Below, piece by piece: positions 1,763 to 39,522 of a DNA stretch of 49,679 nucleotides. How positions within the stretch are numbered: the first letter of the stretch is position 1; each line of letters starts with the position of its first letter. Made by a program: the position numbers and the translations under genes. The stretch comes from Bacteroidota bacterium (GTDB lineage Bacteria; Bacteroidota; Bacteroidia; NS11-12g; UBA955), in the NCBI GenBank assembly GCA_030834125.1, contig JAURFW010000015.1, positions 1 to 49,679 of the forward strand, given 5' to 3'. The notes beneath the pieces are model-generated. The model worked only from the letters and a program-made list of their open reading frames with translations. It was not told where the DNA came from and searched no databases.

Positions 1763-2728
1763 CTACATTCCAAGCATCTGTTTTTTTAATTGGTATTCTT
1801 GTTGAAGCTTGATTCTAATATGATTTCCTGTTTTACTTAATAATGTGCCATTTTCTTTACAGGTATTTAACCAATTTTCTGTTGATAATACCCAATGTGG
1901 TGTATCACTAATAACTACTCCGCTCATCTGTGAGCATATTACTGCATTTTTATCCTTAATAGTGTGAAAAATCATGCTGTTATCGGCAGTAATCATCGGT
2001 GTGAAATACATTTTAATACGCGATCCTTTGTAATTAGGGATGTATGGATTCAGTTTTCTACCTTCTTCTGCTTGCTTGAAAATTAGGTCAATCAGTTGAT
2101 CATATTCTCCTAATACCTTTCTGTAAGAATTATCAGAGTCAAACATACCACATTCTTTATAGTGCTTTATTTGATATAATGTAGAATATATAGTTTCATA
2201 ACCCCAAATTTCATGTGAAACTACTTGTGTATACTTTTCTGCTAGCCTAATAAAAGGACTCTCCAATGAGGTAGGTTTTTCAAATGGCTTATTGGATAGA
2301 GAAGGGTCTTTTAGGAATTCCCTATTCCAAATGAAGTTCTTAAACGAGGATAATGCCGGGAACCATTGATAATAGAAAAAGGGTATTTCTTTTGCACCAT
2401 AAGAAATCTGAGAATGAGGTAAAAATTTGCATCGTTCAACTAGCGATTCTAATTCTTTATAAAAATGATTATAGGTGTAATTTTCAAAATTTAATTCTTT
2501 CAATTTGACACGTGAATAGGTCTCGTTAATATCAGAAAATTGATTGAGATCTATATCTAACTCACGTGCGAGTTTAATCATTTCATCAGCTCGGAATGCT
2601 TGTGGATTTCGAATCCTACGATAAGCTGCATCCTCTGATATATTTAAAAGATCAGACATCATTGCTGCTGTACGAATTCCCATCTTCTTGGTTTTTTCGT
2701 TTAAAATTTGAGTAAATGTTTCAATCAT
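1763..2728 (-). CDS. Helix-turn-helix (XRE/BetR-like) transcriptional regulator with unknown C-terminal domain
   Basis: A 321-residue cytoplasmic protein without signal peptide or membrane segments. Residues about 15-65 look like an XRE-type helix-turn-helix: a helix AAMMSDLLNI, the turn SEDAAYRRIRN and a closing helix ADEMIKLARELDIDLNQF. The remaining 250 residues, rich in aromatic and charged residues, match no domain I can name and may bind a signal or make a dimer. Proteins of this shape are common in Bacteroidota, and their targets are unknown. The gene is transcribed away from the giant secreted hydrolase at 2900 across a 171-bp gap, so that gene is a candidate target by position only. 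I saw no perfect promoter box upstream of its ATG at 2728. Confidence 0.75.
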   Translation of the reverse strand: MIETFTQILNEKTKKMGIRTAAMMSDLLNISEDAAYRRIRNPQAFRADEMIKLARELDIDLNQFSDINETYSRVKLKELNFENYTYNHFYKELESLVERCKFLPHSQISYGAKEIPFFYYQWFPALSSFKNFIWNREFLKDPSLSNKPFEKPTSLESPFIRLAEKYTQVVSHEIWGYETIYSTLYQIKHYKECGMFDSDNSYRKVLGEYDQLIDLIFKQAEEGRKLNPYIPNYKGSRIKMYFTPMITADNSMIFHTIKDKNAVICSQMSGVVISDTPHWVLSTENWLNTCKENGTLLSKTGNHIRIKLQQEYQLKKQMLGM

Positions 2729-2899: not shown

Positions 2900-5800
2900 A
2901 TGAATAAAATATACAAGAAAAACAGAATTGAAAAAATCGATGTTCGTAAATATAACGAGTTGTATTTGCGCATGCGTGGAAAGAGGTGTGTTGTGTTTTA
3001 TAGTTTCAAAGTGATTGTTTGCTTTGCTGCTTTGTGGCTAGGAATTCAATCAACTCTTTTATCACAGGGTTTGGAATTACAAATGCTTAATAAGTTTAAG
3101 AAAATTCAACCCAACAATGGCACTTTGATGAACACTTGGATACCAACAATAGAGACCGAACACATTAATGGTACAAATGAAGATTGGACATCAACATTTA
3201 CTGATGGCGAGGAAATTGAAAGATTAGGTTTGCTTTTGAAATATGGTACAGAAAACTTGAATATTATTGACAGTGTAAGAAGAAATATCAAAGGTCAACA
3301 CATATTAGAAAATACAATTCCGTTGAGTTTGGTGGATGTTTATTACCAGAAACTTAATCCAATTTTGGAACAATCAAATAGGATAATTTATTTAGAGGAC
3401 TCTACTTTAGATTTGAATTTGGAGGGTTTCACCGAGGATATTTATGTTGATCATTTGCTTTTTGGTGTGAACATACCTGTTCAATGGCTAAGATCGGATT
3501 TTACTCATTTAGTTATAGACTCTAATTTATATGTTGGTAATATTGGTTTTGCCTCAGATTTAACGGAGATTTATCTTATTTGTGACGGGAAATCAATTCC
3601 AATTAATTGGAATACTCCAATATTAATTACACCTGAGGTAAGGAGTGGTGCTCCAGTTGAGTTGAAAGTGGTTTTTCCTGAGTTGGATATAAGGTCAGGG
3701 TTTGTTGAAGCCACATTGCCAGAGAGGAAGGATTTTATACGTTTTAGTTCCAAATTTCAATTAGGTGATTGGATTTCTATGCTAAAACCGCCCAGCCTAT
3801 CGGATCCGAATTTAGAGATTCACCATTTTATTGATCCACAATTAGGACTTCCTTATGCCGGTTTATATACAATTCATTACGGTATTGGAGATTTAGGCAA
3901 GACTCGAACATGTTTAGAAAAGCCAATAATTTTAGTTGAGGGTATAGACTTTGGCTATAAAGGTTATCCTTTAGGTAAGTTCGATAACAAATATGGGGAA
4001 AATGGATATATAGATTTGCTGGAGGGGAAGAGTTGGCATGTTCCATCACAAAATTGGAAAAAATGGGAATCTATTGAAGACGCTCCTGCCGTAGTTCAGA
4101 GGTTAAGAGATGAAGGATTTGATATTGTTTATGTAGATTTTTACGATGGCGCTGAAGATATGTCAGTTAATGCAGAGGTTTTAATTCAGATATTTAAAAG
4201 CCTTCAAGATCAGCTTTGTGGAAGAGAAATGCACGTGGTAGGTGTGAGCATGGGCGGTGTAATTGCCCAAAGGTCTATTAAACTTATGGAAAATAGGAAA
4301 ATTCCTCATTGCATCACATCATTAACTGGATTTGATGCACCGTTTCAAGGAGCAAATATTGCCATGGGTTTACAACATTTAGTGAAATATTTAGAAAATT
4401 ATTCTTCCGAAGCAAAAGACCTTTTTCATCGTGTATTAAGGAGGCCTGCAACTCGTCAGTTGTTAGTAAACCATGAATCTTCAAATTATAGACATAATAA
4501 TGCACGACAGAAATGGCTTAGAGAGGACTCTCTTTTTGGCAAATATCCTACCAAACCTTGGTTATTTTCAATTTCAAATGGAAGTTCAAATGGTAAAAAT
4601 TCTAGAATGAAAATGGATGGAAAGGTTGATGTCCAGCCCGGTGGATTCTTGGCTAGATTGCAATTGAGTTTTCCTTTATTTTTTGGTCTAACCAACAATT
4701 ACCTGATAGATATATACGCTGAAAACTTCCATAATAAAACTAAGGATGAGTTCTATTCTGGGCGAGTACATTTTTTAAAGAAATTTTATTCTCACAAGGA
4801 TAACTTGTTGTGGGACCACGTGGCTGGTTCATATGTGAAAAAGTTTGGTTTTTTTGAGGAGTTAGGTAAGTGCAAACTACTGAATAACAGCATATTATCA
4901 AATCAAGATTGCTTTATACCAACAGTAAGTTCTCTAGATTTAACACACGCCGATTACGATAAAAATCATATATCGGATGTAGCATTCAAGGTTAACTCAA
5001 CTGGGATTTCAGATCAATTAACTGGTGAGATGATAAGTCCTTTTAATAGGATCTATACTCCAGAGTCAAATCAACCTCATGTTAAATTAGATAGTAGTAA
5101 AGGCGGAAATATTGATTGGTTAATAAAACAAATAAAATCGGTCTCGCATCATGAATACTCAATGAAACGAGATAGAGACTATAATTTCAAAGCACCAAAT
5201 ATTCGCGTGATTCCCTCGGTTGAAATGAGTGGGACAGGTACTTTAGAAATTAATGGGGTAGGTAACTTCCCGAAGTTAACAGCTGATGATTTTAAAAAAT
5301 TGAAATCTGTACCAGAGCGCAAATTTTTCATAGGTGCGTGCACTTCTAGTGATATTATTATTGATGATTCTGCTAGTTTTTACGTCGGACAACATCAACA
5401 GAGAACAACGGTTTTTATTAACTCATTTTCGAATGTAAAAATCAAAAAAAATGGAAACTTCAATATTGTTAAGGGAGGTAATAAGGTAATTGTTCAAGCA
5501 GGATCGGTATTTGAGTTATCAGATAATTCTGAGTTATATATAGGAAACGGTTCTCAATTAATTATTGAATCTGGGGCAACAATAAAATTCGGTGGAAAAA
5601 GTAAAATTTATCTTGACGGAGATGGTTCATTACTTCATATTAAAGGTCATTTAGAACTTGATTCTGGTTATATATTCAAACCAATTAAAAAATATTTAAA
5701 CCAAGTTGGCTTGGTGAAATTCACAAATGTGGGTTACGGTTATGGAAGTGCTGAAATTAGTGTTCAAAAACACTTTGCTAGTATGCATTTTGAGGGTAAT

Positions 5801-7099
5801 GGACGAAATGGGCATCGAAATCTTCAAATAGAGGGAAATATTGTATTAGATACTAATATTAAAAGTATTGAGCTTCGCAGAAGTTCTTTAATATTTGCCC
5901 CTTCATCATGGTTGAAGGTATCCAAAAAACTTATAATGGATGAAGTACTTTGTACATCTGTAGAGTGGGCAAATGGACCAGCAGGTTCTTTGCAATTTTT
6001 TGGAAATGAACTGTTTCTTACAGATGTAGAATTCTTTTACATGGACACAGCTTGTTTTTTGAATCCTGTTGATGGTTCAAAATCCATAGTTTCTAAACGT
6101 TTAAATTTCTATAATAACAATGTTGGATTGCTTGCAAATAATTCCCGTATTAAGATAGAAAAAAGTGATTTTGCCAATAATTTAGTGGGAGTTTGGTTGT
6201 CCAATATATGGAAGGAAACCATGATTCAGGGGTGTACTTTTACAAGTAATTCTGCAGGGGTAAGAGCAAAAAATGCTACCGAGCAACTGGGTCAATTAAT
6301 GTTAAATGATAATTTATTTGAAGAAAATAATGTTGGACTTCATGTTGTAAAAGTTTTAACTGGCGTTAAATGTAATGAGTTTAAAACGAATAATATTGGG
6401 GTATATAGCAAGGAGTCAATCTTACATCTTGACAAAAAATATCAATACCAGAGTACTGAATTTGAAAGTGATTTTAATTGTGGTTATAATGCCTTCGTAA
6501 ATAATCGAATTAATGCAATGAAGCTTAACAAGTCAGAAATATATTTAAATGGAGATAATGCATTTTTTATAAACCGTAAGTTATACAATAATCAAAAGTA
6601 TATTGTAGGTAGTATTAGAGTAATTGAAACTAAAGAGTATTATTCAAATCAAACTAAGAAGATTAAGTTAGGAGAAAACCTTTGGAGTCCAATTTCAAGC
6701 TCATTCACCACTGATTCAATAGGTTTGAAGTTTGTAAATCTTACAAATGCTTATAAAATTAACACCAGTTTGAATTATTCAACAGATTTAATAAGTGAAT
6801 TTCCATTTGAAGCTTGTTATAAAGCGGATGAATACAGAAATTGGGATCGTTTTAAATGGGCGTCAGATGCAATTGATCAACCAGAAATGGATTCCGATTT
6901 AGGGCCAATTGTTCAGGGGAATAATATTGGTATTAATGATAAAATTAACAGAATTGAAGTTTATGATTTAAAAGGTTCATTATTACATACATTGAGTAAA
7001 AGCTTAATAACACATGTTGAATTAAGTGAAGGAGTGTACATCTTAGTAATAGAGGAAGGCAGTGAATGTCGTTCTATGAAGTTGGGTATTAGAAAATAA
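2900..7099 (+). CDS. Giant secreted GxSxG hydrolase with beta-helix region and T9SS type A sorting domain
   Basis: The protein is 1399 residues long. A hydrophobic stretch at about 31-50 is the export signal. The n-region is long, so ATG codon 24 (MRGKRC) is a plausible alternative start. An alpha/beta-hydrolase domain covers roughly 335-650. It has a strand PIILVEGIDF, a nucleophile elbow GVSMGG (Ser450) and FDAPFQGAN (Asp479) after it, lipase/esterase-like. Residues about 790-1200 contain short Asn/Gly-rich rungs (NNVGLLANN, NLVGVWLSN, NSAGVRAKN, NNVGLHVVK, NNIGVYSKE) typical of a right-handed parallel beta-helix. The last 60 residues (RIEVYDLKG, ELSEGVYILVI) form a type A C-terminal domain for type IX secretion and surface attachment. 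Substrate unknown. The gene is monocistronic, with a strong terminator after it. Domains are seen; enzymatic activity is inferred. Confidence 0.85.
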   Translation: MNKIYKKNRIEKIDVRKYNELYLRMRGKRCVVFYSFKVIVCFAALWLGIQSTLLSQGLELQMLNKFKKIQPNNGTLMNTWIPTIETEHINGTNEDWTSTFTDGEEIERLGLLLKYGTENLNIIDSVRRNIKGQHILENTIPLSLVDVYYQKLNPILEQSNRIIYLEDSTLDLNLEGFTEDIYVDHLLFGVNIPVQWLRSDFTHLVIDSNLYVGNIGFASDLTEIYLICDGKSIPINWNTPILITPEVRSGAPVELKVVFPELDIRSGFVEATLPERKDFIRFSSKFQLGDWISMLKPPSLSDPNLEIHHFIDPQLGLPYAGLYTIHYGIGDLGKTRTCLEKPIILVEGIDFGYKGYPLGKFDNKYGENGYIDLLEGKSWHVPSQNWKKWESIEDAPAVVQRLRDEGFDIVYVDFYDGAEDMSVNAEVLIQIFKSLQDQLCGREMHVVGVSMGGVIAQRSIKLMENRKIPHCITSLTGFDAPFQGANIAMGLQHLVKYLENYSSEAKDLFHRVLRRPATRQLLVNHESSNYRHNNARQKWLREDSLFGKYPTKPWLFSISNGSSNGKNSRMKMDGKVDVQPGGFLARLQLSFPLFFGLTNNYLIDIYAENFHNKTKDEFYSGRVHFLKKFYSHKDNLLWDHVAGSYVKKFGFFEELGKCKLLNNSILSNQDCFIPTVSSLDLTHADYDKNHISDVAFKVNSTGISDQLTGEMISPFNRIYTPESNQPHVKLDSSKGGNIDWLIKQIKSVSHHEYSMKRDRDYNFKAPNIRVIPSVEMSGTGTLEINGVGNFPKLTADDFKKLKSVPERKFFIGACTSSDIIIDDSASFYVGQHQQRTTVFINSFSNVKIKKNGNFNIVKGGNKVIVQAGSVFELSDNSELYIGNGSQLIIESGATIKFGGKSKIYLDGDGSLLHIKGHLELDSGYIFKPIKKYLNQVGLVKFTNVGYGYGSAEISVQKHFASMHFEGNGRNGHRNLQIEGNIVLDTNIKSIELRRSSLIFAPSSWLKVSKKLIMDEVLCTSVEWANGPAGSLQFFGNELFLTDVEFFYMDTACFLNPVDGSKSIVSKRLNFYNNNVGLLANNSRIKIEKSDFANNLVGVWLSNIWKETMIQGCTFTSNSAGVRAKNATEQLGQLMLNDNLFEENNVGLHVVKVLTGVKCNEFKTNNIGVYSKESILHLDKKYQYQSTEFESDFNCGYNAFVNNRINAMKLNKSEIYLNGDNAFFINRKLYNNQKYIVGSIRVIETKEYYSNQTKKIKLGENLWSPISSSFTTDSIGLKFVNLTNAYKINTSLNYSTDLISEFPFEACYKADEYRNWDRFKWASDAIDQPEMDSDLGPIVQGNNIGINDKINRIEVYDLKGSLLHTLSKSLITHVELSEGVYILVIEEGSECRSMKLGIRK

Positions 7100-7223: not shown

Positions 7224-8639
7224 ATGAAGTTAACCTTTTGGGGTGCAGCACAACAAGTAACTGGTAGTATGCATTTACTGCAACTAGAGAGCGGACTTAA
7301 TGTGCTGGTTGATTGTGGTCTCGATTATGAAAATCGAAAAGAATTTGAAGCAAATAATGCAAAATTTCCTTTTGATCCAGCAAGTATAGATTTATTGATA
7401 TTAACTCATGCACATATAGATCACTCTGGTAACATTCCGAATCTAATCAAACAGGGTTTTTCTGGTAATGTAATATGCTCAGAGCCAACGCTTGAATTAA
7501 GCGATTATCTACTTCAAGATAGTTTGAACATTCAAATGATGGAGGTTAGAAAGAAGCGTAAAAATTATTTTAAAAAGAAGAAATCAAAAAAGGTGTCAGC
7601 ATCTGTTCCTCAGGCCTTGTATTCAAAAAAGCATATCATCGATTTTATTGATATGACAATAGCTTTAAAAGATGGAGAAGTTTTTGAAAGTGAAAATGGT
7701 GAAATTCAGATAGAATTGGTTCCGGCTGGACACATCTTAGGTGCAATGAGCGCTCGATTAACCATTAATGAAAATGGTGAAACAAAGGTTATAGGCTTCA
7801 CAGGAGATTTGGGTAATCGAAATTCAAAATTAGTTCCTGATCCTATTCCCATGGATGGTTTGAACTATTTAGTTTCTGAGAGTACTTACGGCGGCAGAAA
7901 ACATATGAATGACAGCAGAAATGCCGAAGAAATTCTACTTGAAGAGGTTGTAGATACTTGTGTTAATAGAGGTGGAAAGTTAGTCATTCCGGCATTTAGT
8001 GTGGGTAGAACGCAGGCAATACTTTTTACTTTAAATCAGTTATTTGCAAGTAAGAAATTGCCAGAAATAAAAGTATTTACTGATAGTCCTTTGGCAATTA
8101 AGTCTACGCGTGTATATCAGCAGAATTTAGAATATCTCAACAAGGAAGCACACGAATTTCAACGCAAATATGGATCGCTTTTTGACTTTCCATTACTGCA
8201 AGTTGTTGAAGATGAAAGAGAAAGTGAGTATTTGAGTGTATTGCCAGAGCCATGTATTGTTGTGTCGGCTGCTGGTATGGTTGAAGGTGGAAGGATTCAA
8301 ATGCATGTAAGAAATAATATTGGACACGCAGAGAATACTATATTAATTGCTGGTTTTTGCGCTGAAGGAACTTTAGGCGATAGACTTTTAAGAGGTCAGG
8401 ATTTTGTAGAAATTAATAGAAAGGAGAGACCAGTTAAAGCAAAGGTTAGTAGGATTGATGTATTTAGCGCTCACCCTGATCACGAGCAATTGTTAGATTA
8501 CTTTAGAGAATCAAATGCCGGATTTTTGGATTCGTTATTTTTAGTGCATGGAGAAGCTGAACAAATGAAAATACTTGCTGATGACGTTAAAGATTTAAAA
8601 GTTATTATGCCCCAAAAAGGGGAATCATTTGAATTATAA
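7224..8639 (+). CDS. Metallo-beta-lactamase/beta-CASP family RNA-processing nuclease
   Basis: The 471-residue protein begins directly with the metallo-beta-lactamase fold (MKLTFWGAAQQVTGS). The zinc-binding signature THAHIDHSGN places H62, H64, D66 and H67 as metal ligands. Further ligands are in PAGHILG and TGDLG. A beta-CASP insertion follows, with ESTYGGRKH, IPAFSVGRTQA, the VVSAAGMVEGGR block and a final SAHPDH. This architecture is shared with the YSH1/CPSF73-like bacterial exonucleases, which act on RNA in the cytoplasm. A lysine-rich stretch at about 110-125 (RKKRKNYFKKKKSKK) could contact nucleic acid. It is the first gene of an apparent operon with lpxK (2-nt gap), gldH and comM. RNA rather than DNA as substrate is inferred from the family. 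Confidence 0.9.
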   Translation: MKLTFWGAAQQVTGSMHLLQLESGLNVLVDCGLDYENRKEFEANNAKFPFDPASIDLLILTHAHIDHSGNIPNLIKQGFSGNVICSEPTLELSDYLLQDSLNIQMMEVRKKRKNYFKKKKSKKVSASVPQALYSKKHIIDFIDMTIALKDGEVFESENGEIQIELVPAGHILGAMSARLTINENGETKVIGFTGDLGNRNSKLVPDPIPMDGLNYLVSESTYGGRKHMNDSRNAEEILLEEVVDTCVNRGGKLVIPAFSVGRTQAILFTLNQLFASKKLPEIKVFTDSPLAIKSTRVYQQNLEYLNKEAHEFQRKYGSLFDFPLLQVVEDERESEYLSVLPEPCIVVSAAGMVEGGRIQMHVRNNIGHAENTILIAGFCAEGTLGDRLLRGQDFVEINRKERPVKAKVSRIDVFSAHPDHEQLLDYFRESNAGFLDSLFLVHGEAEQMKILADDVKDLKVIMPQKGESFEL

Positions 8640-8641
8640 AT

Positions 8642-9652
8642 ATGTGGTTTTTCATTGCTTTCACCTTTGCCGCAATTTTGGTTAGAGGGTATGTTCTCGT
8701 AGCATATTTAAGAAGGTGGCAGTTCGAAAAATTTAAACTAAGAAAAACGCCAGGAAACATAAAAACCTTGGTTGTTGGTAACCTACAAGTGGGAGGAACG
8801 GGTAAAACACCGTTTGTGATCTTTTTATTAAATAACCTTCAATTAAACATCGCGGTTTTATCGAGAGGGTATGGTAGAAAATCCAAAGGTTTTTATAAGG
8901 TTTCCGATGATTCAAATGCCACAGATGTTGGCGATGAACCACTTGAAATTTTTAACAGCCACAATAAACAGTCCGTGTATGTTTGTGAAAACAGACTAGA
9001 AGGAATTAGTAATATTGAAAAGCTCGGGAATTACGACTTAGTTCTTTTAGATGATGGATATCAGCATCTACCGCTAAAGGCTCAAAAGAATATTATACTT
9101 ACACCATTTAGTAGGTTATTTACCGATGAGTCATTTTCGTTACCAGTTGGCAGACTTAGAGAGTTGCCAGAGCTTGCTGGAAAGTCTGATATTATAGTTG
9201 TTACCAAATGTCCTATAGGATTAAATCAATCTGATGCTCAAAAATTGGAATACAAATTATTGAAGTACACAAATTCCGTGTTTTTTGCACATTATTCAGT
9301 AGTTGGTCCAATTATTGGTCATAATGGTGAAAAATTTAATTCAAAAAAAGCAATTCTTGTCACAGGAATTGCTCCCACTTCCCTTGAAATTAAAGGGGTA
9401 GACGTAGTAAAGCATTTCAAATACTCCGATCATTTTCAATTTTCACAAAAACAGGTTAATAAATGGTTGGATTTTTGTGAAAAGCACAAAATTCAGGGGA
9501 TAATATTTACTAGGAAAGATAGGGTACGCATGTTGGCTGATGTAAATTTGTATGAACGATTAAATAATAATTTAGAGGTCGGAGAAATATTTACGGAAGT
9601 AGAAATTTTATTCAACCAAGCAAATCAATTGTTGTCGTTAATTAAAGAATAA
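8642..9652 (+). CDS. lpxK: Tetraacyldisaccharide 4'-kinase LpxK
   Basis: LpxK phosphorylates the 4' position of the lipid A disaccharide precursor at the cytoplasmic face of the inner membrane (Raetz pathway). The 336-residue protein has a short hydrophobic N-terminal anchor (residues 1-22) and then a P-loop, VGNLQVGGTGKTP, with the Walker A Gly51-Thr56. The block LSRGYGRKSKGF, the motif GDEP, and LLDDGYQH (the Walker B-like DDG-YQH of the family) follow in order. Length and order match the family. It starts 2 nt after the nuclease gene and ends 5 nt before gldH, so it is probably co-transcribed. The start ATG is the only sensible one for keeping the anchor. Confidence 0.96.
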   Translation: MWFFIAFTFAAILVRGYVLVAYLRRWQFEKFKLRKTPGNIKTLVVGNLQVGGTGKTPFVIFLLNNLQLNIAVLSRGYGRKSKGFYKVSDDSNATDVGDEPLEIFNSHNKQSVYVCENRLEGISNIEKLGNYDLVLLDDGYQHLPLKAQKNIILTPFSRLFTDESFSLPVGRLRELPELAGKSDIIVVTKCPIGLNQSDAQKLEYKLLKYTNSVFFAHYSVVGPIIGHNGEKFNSKKAILVTGIAPTSLEIKGVDVVKHFKYSDHFQFSQKQVNKWLDFCEKHKIQGIIFTRKDRVRMLADVNLYERLNNNLEVGEIFTEVEILFNQANQLLSLIKE

Positions 9653-9657
9653 TAATT

Positions 9658-10140
9658 ATGAAGCATTTTTTGTATTCAATTGTCATGATTAGTTTGTTCT
9701 CTGGGTGTACAGTCTCCGAAAATATATATTACGAACAGTTTGAAGCTGTAAATCCTGAATCATGGGAATGGGAAGATGTAAAGAAATTTGAATTCGAGGT
9801 AACGGACAGTTCACATTTGTATAATTTGTTTTGCGGCCTTCGCATTGATTCAGATTACTATTACAGTAATATATGGTTGATCTATGTATTGCGCGGTCCA
9901 AACGGATATATGCGTAAAGATCAATTTCAGGTAGTGTTATCGGATAATTTTGGAAAGTGGAAGGGAGAAGGAGTCTCGAATTTAATATCTTATAGAACTC
10001 CATTTATCAAAAATCAGCAATTGAAAAAGGGGAAATATACCTTAGAGGTTTTCCAAAATATGCGTGATGAAAGTCTTGAGCACGTAAATAATGTAGGCCT
10101 TCAAATTTTAAAAGGCCAACTTGTCTTGGCAAGTAATTAA
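9658..10140 (+). CDS. gldH: Gliding motility lipoprotein GldH
   Basis: A 160-residue lipoprotein with a lipobox ending in Cys17 (SLFSGC) after a short hydrophobic signal. The mature part resembles GldH: an early NIYYEQF segment, W-rich WEWEDVKKFEF, LYNLFCGLRID, IWLIYVLRGPNG and a terminal NVGLQILKG strand. GldH is required for gliding in Flavobacterium and is widespread in gliding and type IX-secreting Bacteroidota; its molecular role is not well defined. It acts at the periplasmic face of a membrane. It lies in the nuclease-lpxK-gldH-comM string (5 nt after lpxK). Together with the T9SS sorting domains in this window it suggests a working T9SS and possibly gliding, although the gld core genes are not here. 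Confidence 0.88.
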   Translation: MKHFLYSIVMISLFSGCTVSENIYYEQFEAVNPESWEWEDVKKFEFEVTDSSHLYNLFCGLRIDSDYYYSNIWLIYVLRGPNGYMRKDQFQVVLSDNFGKWKGEGVSNLISYRTPFIKNQQLKKGKYTLEVFQNMRDESLEHVNNVGLQILKGQLVLASN

Positions 10141-37593: not shown

Positions 37594-39522
37594 ATGCGTG
37601 TTATTGCGTTTTTGTTCTTTGCCAGTATTTCAATTCTCCAAGCTCAAATTGAAGATGCTTTTTCTTGTGCTTACAAAGCTCAATTTGAAAGAAGACTAAA
37701 CATTGGTAAAAGAGCAAACAACATTGAGTTTTATGGATATGACATTCGTTATCATAGGTGTTTTTGGGAATTAAATCCAAATCAAGGGTCAAACATAAAG
37801 GGAAAGGTACTTTTTCAGTTTAAAATAGAACAGGACTGTGATTCTATCATTTTTGATTTAAATAATGAACTTAGAATTGATTCGATCATTCACTTTGGAA
37901 TAAAAACAAGATTTGATCGCGATGGAGATAAGGTTAAAGTTTTTAGAAGTAATGGTGAGATTTGGAAAAAGGATTTAATCGATAGCTTTCAAGTCTATTA
38001 CGGTGGAAACCCGGCATCTATTTCAGGTGGGTTTGGTGCATATGTTTATGACAATCATGCCACAGGCCCCGTAATTCATACACTTTCCGAACCTTATGGT
38101 GCCCCGTTTTGGTGGCCATGTAAACAGACTCTAAACGACAAAATTGACTCAATAGATATCTATGTATACACAGATAGCAGTTTTAAAGCTGGGTCAAATG
38201 GGGTTTTGGTAGATAGTAAATACACGGATACAGGTTATCATCTTATTCATTGGAAGCACAGATATCCAATTACAACCTATTTGGTGGCCATAGCGGTTAC
38301 TAATTATTCTGAATTTACGGATTACGTTCATTTTCATAATAGGTTAGATTCATTACCAATTGTTAATTATGTGTTTCCACAGTTTTTAGAATCTTCTAAA
38401 ACTCAGGCTAAAGTTACGGTGCCAATGCTTAGGCTATTCGATAGTTTATTCGTCGAATATCCATTTACCAAAGAAAAATACGGACATTCTCAATTTACAT
38501 GGGGAGGTGGTATGGAACATCAGACAATGAGTTTTATGGTGAACTTCTCTTTTGATTTGATAGCGCATGAGTTGGCTCATCAATGGTTTGGGAATTTAAT
38601 TACGTGTGCTTCATGGAATGACCTTTGGTTGAATGAGGGGTTTGCAACTTATCTAACTGCACTTACTCATGAATATTTAATATCTGATGAAGACTTTAAA
38701 AACCAAATGAGAGGTATGCGTGGATCAATAACGGCTGATCCTAATGGAGCTGTATTTCCATCTGATACTTCTATTGTGAACGTTTTATTCAATGGCAGAT
38801 TGAGATATCAAAAAGGGGCATGGTTATTACACATGTTAAGACATAAAATTGGTGATTCCCTTTTTTATGAGGGAAATAGACAATATATAAATGCATTGAA
38901 AGAAAAAGGCTTTGGAACAACTGATGAATATAAAAACATAATGCAGCAGGTTTCGGGAGTTGACTTGGACTTGTTTTTTAATCAATGGTTTTTTGGGGAA
39001 GGACACCCAAATTTAAAAATAAATTGGCGTCAAAGGGCTAATGATGTAAAGGTTGAAATAACACAATCGCCGTCGAACAATAGTGTACCTTTTTGGAAGA
39101 TCCCTGTTCCCTTATTGTTTTCAAATAAAACTCAAACCAAGCTCATCACTTTCTACCCTGATTCGCTTCAACAGTCCTTTGAGATCAAGCTGCCTTTTTC
39201 TGCTGATACAGCTATTTGGGATCCTGAGGTTTCGGTTTTAGCGAAAACATCTTTAGGTGGGGTTAATTTAGATAAGATTCAAGAGGATGAAATTGTAGTA
39301 TTTCCTAATCCGGGTCAAGGAAAATTTAAACTAGTGTCGCGAAATCCAAATATTAATCAAGTAGAAGTGTACAACTCACTTGGACAATTAGTCCTAAAGG
39401 ATGAATTTTATGGAGTACAGAACTGTGACATAAGTTCCAAAAGCCTTAGTGATGGGGTGTTCTACATTCGAATATATACTGACAATTTCGTATATTTGAA
39501 GATATGGTCGTGCGTAAAATAG
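37594..39522 (+). CDS. M1 family aminopeptidase with T9SS type A sorting domain
   Basis: The 642-residue secreted peptidase has a signal peptide (MRVIAFLFFASISILQAQ), an N-terminal M1 saddle domain and the substrate motif WGGGMEHQTMS in place of GAMEN. The zinc site is HELAH (His325, Glu326, His329), with Glu348 18 residues on (LWLNEGF). After about residue 555 comes a short linker and a type A C-terminal sorting domain: VVFPNPGQGKFKLVS, VEVYNSLGQLVL and LSDGVFYIRIYTDN. It is therefore exported by type IX secretion to the cell surface. It heads a three-gene string: the MbnP-like gene begins 19 bp before its stop. A near-match box (GAAATTTG) ends 4 nt before the ATG. Linked function with the copper genes is unknown. 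Confidence 0.93.
   Translation: MRVIAFLFFASISILQAQIEDAFSCAYKAQFERRLNIGKRANNIEFYGYDIRYHRCFWELNPNQGSNIKGKVLFQFKIEQDCDSIIFDLNNELRIDSIIHFGIKTRFDRDGDKVKVFRSNGEIWKKDLIDSFQVYYGGNPASISGGFGAYVYDNHATGPVIHTLSEPYGAPFWWPCKQTLNDKIDSIDIYVYTDSSFKAGSNGVLVDSKYTDTGYHLIHWKHRYPITTYLVAIAVTNYSEFTDYVHFHNRLDSLPIVNYVFPQFLESSKTQAKVTVPMLRLFDSLFVEYPFTKEKYGHSQFTWGGGMEHQTMSFMVNFSFDLIAHELAHQWFGNLITCASWNDLWLNEGFATYLTALTHEYLISDEDFKNQMRGMRGSITADPNGAVFPSDTSIVNVLFNGRLRYQKGAWLLHMLRHKIGDSLFYEGNRQYINALKEKGFGTTDEYKNIMQQVSGVDLDLFFNQWFFGEGHPNLKINWRQRANDVKVEITQSPSNNSVPFWKIPVPLLFSNKTQTKLITFYPDSLQQSFEIKLPFSADTAIWDPEVSVLAKTSLGGVNLDKIQEDEIVVFPNPGQGKFKLVSRNPNINQVEVYNSLGQLVLKDEFYGVQNCDISSKSLSDGVFYIRIYTDNFVYLKIWSCVK

What the first reader, a model, noticed from the sequence alone, without database searches (positions are those of the whole stretch)
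2900..7099. 1399-residue surface hydrolase: lipase-type fold, beta-helix and T9SS domain in one chain
The chain combines a GVSMGG nucleophile elbow, a FDAPFQGAN motif, at least five Asn/Gly rungs of a parallel beta-helix and a type A sorting domain. Beta-helices usually bind or cut polysaccharides, so pairing with an esterase-like domain suggests deacylation of a surface-bound glycan or lipid. I know of no characterised enzyme of this layout.
Basis: partly seen in the sequence, partly recalled or inferred. Interest (0 to 1): 0.5.

Follow-up and report, generated by a model that had tools for sequence, protein, structure and literature searches.

The report
Probable stalked T9SS surface lipase
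This gene of an uncultured Bacteroidota bacterium encodes a probable lipase-type enzyme carried on a long beta-helix and exported to the cell surface; it belongs to a widespread, apparently unstudied family whose enzyme half, in some relatives, has been exchanged together with a small neighbouring lipoprotein gene.

Summary
ORF 2900-7099 (+) encodes one 1399-residue chain with a lipase-type alpha/beta-hydrolase domain (about aa 318-755; Z 18.1 to lipase BlEst2), a parallel beta-helix (about aa 806-1283; Z 20.8 to NosD) and a C-terminal domain matching T9SS sorting domains. Its own sorting-domain score (21.0) is just under the curated cut-off (23).

The triad is best read as Ser450-Asp479-His727: invariant in 97 of 97 aligned rows, 19 of them found without the search pattern. 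Asp639 is a weaker rival; His640 is not conserved. Distances were not measurable.

The glycan reading is not supported: one charged helix position is conserved, and no CAZyme turned up among 14 scanned neighbours.

The family is apparently uncharacterised. Outside the window's clade, 27 of 91 loci have a small lipoprotein gene beside the hydrolase gene. In two locus pairs the enzyme half differs sharply while the helix is well conserved, and lipoprotein type tracks the hydrolase half. This resembles effector-immunity modules. The window's own clade lacks the lipoprotein (0 of 10).

The parts
2900..7099 (+). ORF of 1399 aa: signal-peptide-like N-terminus, N-terminal region, lipase-type hydrolase, beta-helix, T9SS-type C-terminal domain
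2972..3067 (+). aa 25-56, signal-peptide-like stretch ending SQ; the true start may be Met25 rather than Met1
   Evidence: read by eye; most relatives start near here; no signal-peptide program was run
3068..3799 (+). aa 57-300, N-terminal helix-plus-strand region, fast-evolving (13-30% identity for aa 46-330)
   Evidence: fold not identified
3851..5164 (+). aa 318-755, lipase-type alpha/beta-hydrolase domain, slowest-evolving part (59% identity to L042)
4247..4249 (+). Ser450, nucleophile, between strand (model 405-410) and helix (model 412-426)
   Evidence: 97 of 97 rows; DSSP
4331..4357 (+). FDAPFQGAN (aa 478-486); Asp479 (4334-4336), first residue after the strand at model 433-439 (read as beta6), is the favoured catalytic acid
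   Evidence: 97 of 97 rows, 19 of 19 pattern-free; DSSP
4577..4579 (+). Asn560, two residues after the strand at model 515-519 (read as beta7), where most alpha/beta hydrolases carry the acid
   Evidence: Asn in 91 of 97 rows; DSSP
4646..4789 (+). aa 583-630, strand-rich insertion after beta7 (possible lid)
   Evidence: model strands 544-591; lid role inferred
4814..4816 (+). Asp639, rival catalytic acid
   Evidence: Asp in 89 of 97 rows, 13 of 19 pattern-free
5078..5080 (+). His727, catalytic histidine, in the loop before the last helix (model 698-713)
   Evidence: 97 of 97 rows
5315..6748 (+). aa 806-1283, parallel beta-helix, read as a stalk or scaffold
6908..7096 (+). aa 1337-1399, T9SS-type C-terminal sorting domain
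1763..2728 (-). Divergent 321-aa gene, HTH-like N-terminus by eye; next to the target in the clade
7224..10140 (+). Syntenic downstream genes: MBL/beta-CASP protein, LpxK, GldH

Best explanation
A Sec- and T9SS-exported serine hydrolase of lipase type, shown on the cell surface at the end of a beta-helix stalk. Ser450 attacks an acyl ester, most likely of a lipid; His727 acts as general base, held by an acid that is probably Asp479, placed after strand beta6 instead of beta7. The beta-helix is a scaffold, not a second enzyme, and the C-terminal domain is the T9SS sorting signal. Shown here: sequence conservation, predicted folds, single copy, synteny, T9SS genes in the genome. Inferred: activity, the acid's identity, substrate, surface display.
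For: Lipase fold, Z 18.1 to BlEst2, with lysosomal, gastric and CalB lipases close behind. Ser450, Asp479 and His727 are invariant in 97 of 97 rows and sit at catalytic topological positions. The hydrolase is the slowest-evolving part: 59% identity against 37% for the helix and 27% for the N-terminal region to L042. The helix has no conserved charged cluster. C-terminal fold matches T9SS CTDs. PorU and SprA are present and 61 TIGR04183 matches occur in the genome, 59 of them over the cut-off. The gene is found in 10 of 13 other genomes of the genus; the three without a match are 74-82% complete. An acid after beta6 is known elsewhere, for example in ZenA lactonase, with Pro two residues on (PMC10913051, passages).
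Against: No coordinates, so triad distances are unmeasured. Window Pfam scores are under the cut-offs, and the window's CTD scores 21.0 against 23. Asp479 invariance in 77 of 97 rows follows from the search pattern. Asp639 is also well conserved. Foldseek E-values for the CTD match are weak. No substrate evidence at all.
Confidence: 0.62

Rival explanations
1. The family is a conflict module: the hydrolase half is a membrane-damaging payload on a T9SS stalk, and the adjacent lipoprotein is its immunity protein or inhibitor. The window's member has lost or never had its partner.
For: Lipoprotein of two kinds within 500 bp, same strand, in 15 of 27 other helix forms and 12 of 64 forms without helix. 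Carboxypeptidase-regulatory or DUF6252 domains (E up to 0.01) in 9 and 7 of 56 adjacent small ORFs, neither among the 25 listed families of 84 controls. Enzyme-half difference on a shared helix in L035/L067 and L059/L063. Partner type fits the hydrolase tree better than the helix tree. Tandem lipoproteins in L067, L083 and L058 and gene relics in L086.
Against: 0 of 10 in the window's clade; own genome gives no DUF6252-type match, and for the other type three domain-level matches in large frames plus two marginal ones. 52 of 64 forms without helix lack the partner within 500 bp. A periplasmic chaperone would leave similar traces. The control contrast weakens when tandem copies are put back.
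Confidence: 0.4
2. The adjacent lipoprotein in relatives is a lipase-specific foldase or anchor rather than an immunity protein; the enzyme is a nutrient or envelope lipase.
For: Same pairing and co-exchange. Lipase foldases encoded beside lipases are known (recalled, no call).
Against: Up to four tandem lipoproteins and relic arrays fit protection better than folding; the window's clade manages without.
Confidence: 0.3
3. Deacylase of a surface-bound polysaccharide, with the helix binding the glycan.
For: Helix resembles alginate epimerases, tailspikes and lyases in fold.
Against: No conserved charged cluster on the helix; no CAZyme match among 14 scanned neighbours; NosD is the best match.
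Confidence: 0.12
4. Triad acid is Asp639 instead of Asp479.
For: Asp in 89 and Glu in 4 of 97 rows.
Against: 13 of 19 pattern-free rows only, although misalignment explains part; lies outside the usual acid loops as I read the topology.
Confidence: 0.25

Closest known systems
Bacillus licheniformis lipase BlEst2 and CalB-type lipases (6wpy, 1tca)
   Same: Catalytic fold, Z 18.1 and 16.1; nucleophile elbow; His before the last helix (the last two recalled for these lipases)
   Different: 12-16% identity; here Asn at the beta7 acid site, a strand insertion, and a helix and sorting domain in the same chain
Pfam PGAP1 (PF07819) and DUF676 (PF05057)
   Same: Of 8 relatives scanned, L098, L104, L100 and L107 pass the DUF676 cut-off, L069 and L062 the PGAP1 cut-off
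   Different: The window chain scores 13.2 for PGAP1 against 24.3
ZenA zearalenone lactonases
   Same: Acid after beta6 (Asp137) with Pro139 two residues on, antiparallel insertion after beta7 (PMC10913051, passages only)
   Different: Helix and sorting domain not mentioned in the passages seen; sequence relation not tested
TANFOR polymorphic toxins of Bacteroidetes
   Same: Bacteroidota, proposed T9SS link, toxin plus adjacent immunity gene (PMC7073777, passages)
   Different: No TANFOR match; catalytic part N-terminal of the helix; own CTD; partner lipoprotein only in relatives
NosD and alginate epimerase beta-helices
   Same: Helix fold, Z 20.8 and 19.6
   Different: No conserved charged cluster on the helix

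Membership tests
Alpha/beta-hydrolase serine lipases/esterases | Fold with nucleophile elbow GxSxG between strand and helix | tested here: met
Alpha/beta-hydrolase serine lipases/esterases | Invariant His in the loop before the last helix | tested here: met
   His727 in 97 of 97 rows; model 688 before helix 698-713
Alpha/beta-hydrolase serine lipases/esterases | Acid after beta7, or alternatively after beta6 | tested here: inconclusive
   Asn560 after beta7; Asp479 after beta6 invariant; Asp639 rival; strand names are my reading of the DSSP order
Alpha/beta-hydrolase serine lipases/esterases | Triad within hydrogen-bond distance | not testable with these tools
   no coordinates returned
Alpha/beta-hydrolase serine lipases/esterases | Ester hydrolysis | not testable with these tools
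   bench assay needed
Pfam PGAP1 / DUF676 | Score over the gathering cut-off | tested here: not met
   window 13.2 against 24.3 for PGAP1, no DUF676 match listed; some relatives pass
T9SS type A cargo | TIGR04183 over cut-off | tested here: not met
   21.0 against 23; relative L043 27.6 passes, L045 22.0 does not
T9SS type A cargo | CTD fold | tested here: met
   7pq4 and 8gl8_D at probability 1.00, E 0.013 and 0.13
T9SS type A cargo | T9SS machinery in the genome | tested here: met
   PorU 867 bits, SprA 2255 bits; other components not searched
Beta-helix polysaccharide enzymes (PL, GH28, CE8) | Conserved catalytic acids/bases on the helix | tested here: not met
   one charged position of 41 conserved at 75% or more
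Polymorphic toxin / effector-immunity module | Adjacent cognate partner gene | tested here: not met
   0 of 10 in the window's clade; 27 of 91 other loci
Polymorphic toxin / effector-immunity module | Exchange of payload on a constant delivery part | tested here: inconclusive
   two locus pairs in relatives, none seen in the window's clade
TANFOR toxins | TANFOR domain | tested here: not met
   no such match at E up to 1 in NCBIfam; that the library holds TIGR02542 is assumed

The most novel reading that the evidence does not exclude
The family is a T9SS-borne polymorphic system: a lipase payload at the N-terminal side of a surface-anchored beta-helix, exchanged as one cassette with its lipoprotein gene (immunity or inhibitor, of two different kinds), leaving relic and orphan arrays. 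The window's clade would be a partner-less branch that fixed one payload.
Probability: 0.4. Interest if true: 0.68.

Novelty: new variant of a known kind. Interest (0 to 1): 0.45.

Why it matters
Bacteroidota export many proteins by T9SS whose roles are unknown. This family gives a testable enzyme: a defined triad, probably with its acid at the less usual beta6 site. It also gives, in relatives, a genetic pairing with lipoproteins that travels with the enzyme half. If the pairing is effector and immunity, it could supply the kind of experimental system for T9SS in bacterial competition that PMC7073777 (passages) calls for.

Tried and rejected
Direct naming by Pfam, NCBIfam and PDB sequence search gave only weak or chance-level hits for the window chain and the profiles. 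Viral contigs gave no relative. His640 as catalytic His: rejected, His in 17 of 77 pattern-found rows. Helix as glycan enzyme: rejected on conservation. Neighbourhoods: the short Flavobacteriaceae forms sit in a conserved neighbourhood of genes that I read by eye as housekeeping, the window's clade beside MBL/beta-CASP, LpxK, GldH and mostly YifB; neither suggests glycan use. A relocated partner in the own genome: DUF6252-type none (both without a positive control); the other type gave three domain-level matches in frames of 624-936 aa and two marginal ones in frames of 165 and 349 aa, not followed. The VIA-align lists cover mainly model residues 261-713 and 244-681, so the N-terminal region has no tested fold. 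Paper searches on DUF676 with T9SS and on DUF6252 returned none.

Limits of counts. A2 used 64 of the 80 loci, A3 27 of the 31 with long tails; A4 used 77 of the 80 (L044, L075 and L089 are cut at the 5' end) and 19 pattern-free rows, cut out around SMG; A2, not cut that way, has Ser450 in 64 of 65 rows and a gap in truncated L075. Of the pattern-free hits, the pseudogene-like L144, contig-end L141, the six short matches and loci already in A1 were left out of A4, 26 of 26 rows have Asp479. Lipoprotein models A7 and A8 were built from 10 and 12 adjacent genes, so 22 of the 27 loci are seeds; independent finds are L041, L075, L080, L110 and L152, plus tandem copies. 30 of the 101 loci have under 600 bases on one side, and loci are not independent of each other. 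The lipobox test was a hand-made rule: 26 of 56 adjacent against 19 of 84 control ORFs, Fisher p 0.005; an earlier, stricter rule gave 79 of 671 and 54 of 322 in non-adjacent ORFs. A5: L054 dropped as a near copy of L052, L067 entered as the same gene from L037, L130 added although 471 bp away. A6: of 140 randomly drawn same-strand ORFs, 56 were left out by hand: mostly near copies between related loci, five tandem lipoproteins, three L086 relics and some without a fixed rule. The domain contrast (16 of 56, taking the two kinds as not overlapping, against an assumed bound of 2 of 84 because only 25 of 107 control families are shown) gives p 7e-6; with the five tandem copies counted as controls it is 0.002, and the lipobox contrast 0.02. 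The partner labels of the trees were set by hand; 10 of 35 rows had none.
Full report
What is there. The ORF at 2900-7099 (+) is 1399 aa, as stated. Pfam and NCBIfam give only sub-threshold alpha/beta-hydrolase hits for it, and a PDB sequence search gives one chance-level hit. It is single copy in its 2.3-Mb genome; a profile of the family adds only two weak matches in one giant frame.

Relatives. Among 57 genomes of the genus, family and order, own included, 22 have a match; 10 of the 13 other genomes of the genus do, and the three without are 74-82% complete. In 395 genomes across the phylum, own included, 26 match at E up to 1e-6, six of them only over about 80 residues. In genome contigs 443 of 457 pattern matches encode a relative; 80 loci were kept. 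That pattern fixes F, D, P, G, A, N of FD[SAG]P[HF]xGAN, so invariance of these residues in those loci is by construction.

Structure. The model of aa 40-790 (65-row alignment of window and the search for related loci rows) has pLDDT 84.6 and pTM 0.84. VIA-align gives Z 18.1 to BlEst2 (224 aligned, rmsd 3.4), 17.6 to lysosomal acid lipase and 16.1 to CalB. The model of aa 620-1399 has pLDDT 79.0 and pTM 0.69, Z 20.8 to NosD (301 aligned, rmsd 3.6) and 19.9 and 19.6 to a tailspike and an alginate epimerase. Its C-terminus matches the RgpB CTD and a chain of the SprA-PorV-RemZ T9SS complex at probability 1.00, with E-values of 0.013 and 0.13. Residue numbers here are window numbers, that is model plus 39 or plus 619.

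Catalytic residues. In A4 (97 rows) Ser450, Asp479, Ser677 and His727 are invariant; Asp639 is Asp in 89 and Glu in 4; Asn560 is Asn in 91. In the 19 rows found without the pattern, Ser450, Asp479 and His727 are 19 of 19, and Asp639 is 13 of 19; raw sequences show that part of the Asp639 loss is misalignment. By DSSP, Ser450 follows a strand and precedes a helix, Asp479 is the first residue after the next strand, Asn560 is two residues after the following one, and His727 is in the loop before the last helix. I read these strands as beta5, beta6 and beta7. The usual acid site is after beta7; an acid after beta6 is a known alternative, called functionally equivalent, and ZenA has it (Asp137, with Pro139) together with an antiparallel insertion after beta7 (PMC10913051, passages). 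I therefore favour Ser450-Asp479-His727. Distances could not be measured.

The helix. To L042 the hydrolase is the most conserved part (59%) against 37% for the helix, 27% for the N-terminal region and 15% for the CTD. Of 41 helix positions conserved in at least 75% of 28 rows only Glu890 is charged. That speaks for a scaffold and against a second, polysaccharide-cutting site.

Secretion. PorU and SprA are in the genome with 61 TIGR04183 matches, 59 over the cut-off; the target's own scores 21.0 against a cut-off of 23. Relative L043 gives 27.6 and L045 22.0. I call it a probable T9SS cargo on fold and kinship, not on its own score.

Neighbourhood. The order HTH-like gene, target, MBL/beta-CASP, LpxK, GldH and, in most loci, YifB is kept in the genus; L034 (same contig as L051) and L055 keep it without YifB. 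These five flanking genes are 38-83% identical where the target is 25-42%. None of the 14 window neighbours scanned matches a CAZyme family; one TonB-receptor-plug protein lies 14 kb away.

A pairing outside the window's clade. Many other members have a small lipoprotein gene directly beside the hydrolase gene, same strand. Two kinds occur: one with a carboxypeptidase-regulatory domain, one DUF6252-like. At E up to 0.01 Pfam finds the first in 9 and the second in 7 of 56 adjacent small ORFs; neither is among the 25 listed families of 84 control ORFs. The contrast is p 7e-6 as sampled and 0.002 when five tandem copies taken out of the controls are put back. With models of both kinds, a partner lies within 500 bp in 0 of 10 loci of the window's clade, 15 of 27 other helix forms and 12 of 64 forms without helix; 22 of these 27 loci gave the models, five did not. 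Many are tandem: four copies in L067, four in L083, three in L058. L086 holds two hydrolase genes, an apparently 5'-truncated one and three C-terminal relics, interleaved with four lipoprotein genes.

Exchange of the enzyme half. Of 595 pairs among 35 members with both halves, three have a helix more than 15 points more identical than the hydrolase; the median difference is -5. They are L035/L067 (N-terminal 32%, hydrolase 29%, helix 88%, last 80 residues 94%), L059/L063 (32, 38, 77, 38%) and L035/L038 (29, 33, 54, 39%), the last being kin of the first. In L035/L067, same genus, the DNA is 85% identical from the helix start through the downstream genes, while the preceding lipoproteins are of different kinds. 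On careful trees the partner label (C, D or none) needs 2 changes on the hydrolase tree, the minimum, and 5 on the helix tree; kind D alone needs 1 against 4. The D group on the hydrolase tree has support 89/93, not starred, and long branches meet in the helix tree, so the contrast is indicative. The partner thus seems to travel with the enzyme half. That is what effector-immunity cassettes do; a dedicated foldase would also fit, but tandem copies and relics fit protection better.

What this means for the window's gene. Its clade has no partner gene and no sign of exchange, and is one group in both trees. So for this gene the supported statement is a conserved, probably stalked surface lipase; the conflict reading is a property of relatives and only a possibility here.

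Helix acquisition. On a quick tree of 97 hydrolase rows the helix label needs 3 changes, with 27 helix forms, the window among them, in one supported group. The fusion looks old and kept.

Literature. Listings of searches showed no paper on this layout in the held library; most subscription papers are not in it. PMC7073777 (passages) describes TANFOR polymorphic toxins proposed to use T9SS, with C-terminal toxins and other immunity families. PMC11878206 was seen in passages only.

Noticed in passing
L035:4675-10390 and L067:449-7175: Same-genus loci with near-identical helix and downstream genes but a different hydrolase half and a different kind of upstream lipoprotein: probably a cassette exchange.
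   Followed up: yes
L086:37-11326: Array of two hydrolase genes, an apparently truncated one and three C-terminal relics, interleaved with four lipoprotein genes.
   Followed up: partly
L070:831-11167: Two full-length helix-form hydrolase genes in tandem, each preceded by DUF6252-like lipoprotein genes.
   Followed up: partly
L041:887-5819: Upstream of the hydrolase gene, two DUF6252-like lipoproteins, a short hydrolase relic (5034-5273) and three copies of a further lipoprotein-like gene.
   Followed up: partly
window 1763-2728 (-): 321-aa protein with HTH-like N-terminus and no Pfam match; a relative also lies 1.0-1.5 kb from distant members L062, L063 and L075.
   Followed up: partly
window 37594-39522 (+): Another protein of the window carries a T9SS sorting domain over the cut-off (39298-39495).
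   Followed up: no
G000:C28, near 60148-66522: A single open frame of 8579 aa in the same genome with weak matches to the N-terminal part of the A2 model.
   Followed up: no
L068, L069, L073, L074, L076, L078, L081: Hydrolase relatives in MAGs named Krumholzibacteriota/-ia, Eisenbacteria and Latescibacterota, without helix match; L069 ends in a FlgD-type Ig domain.
   Followed up: no
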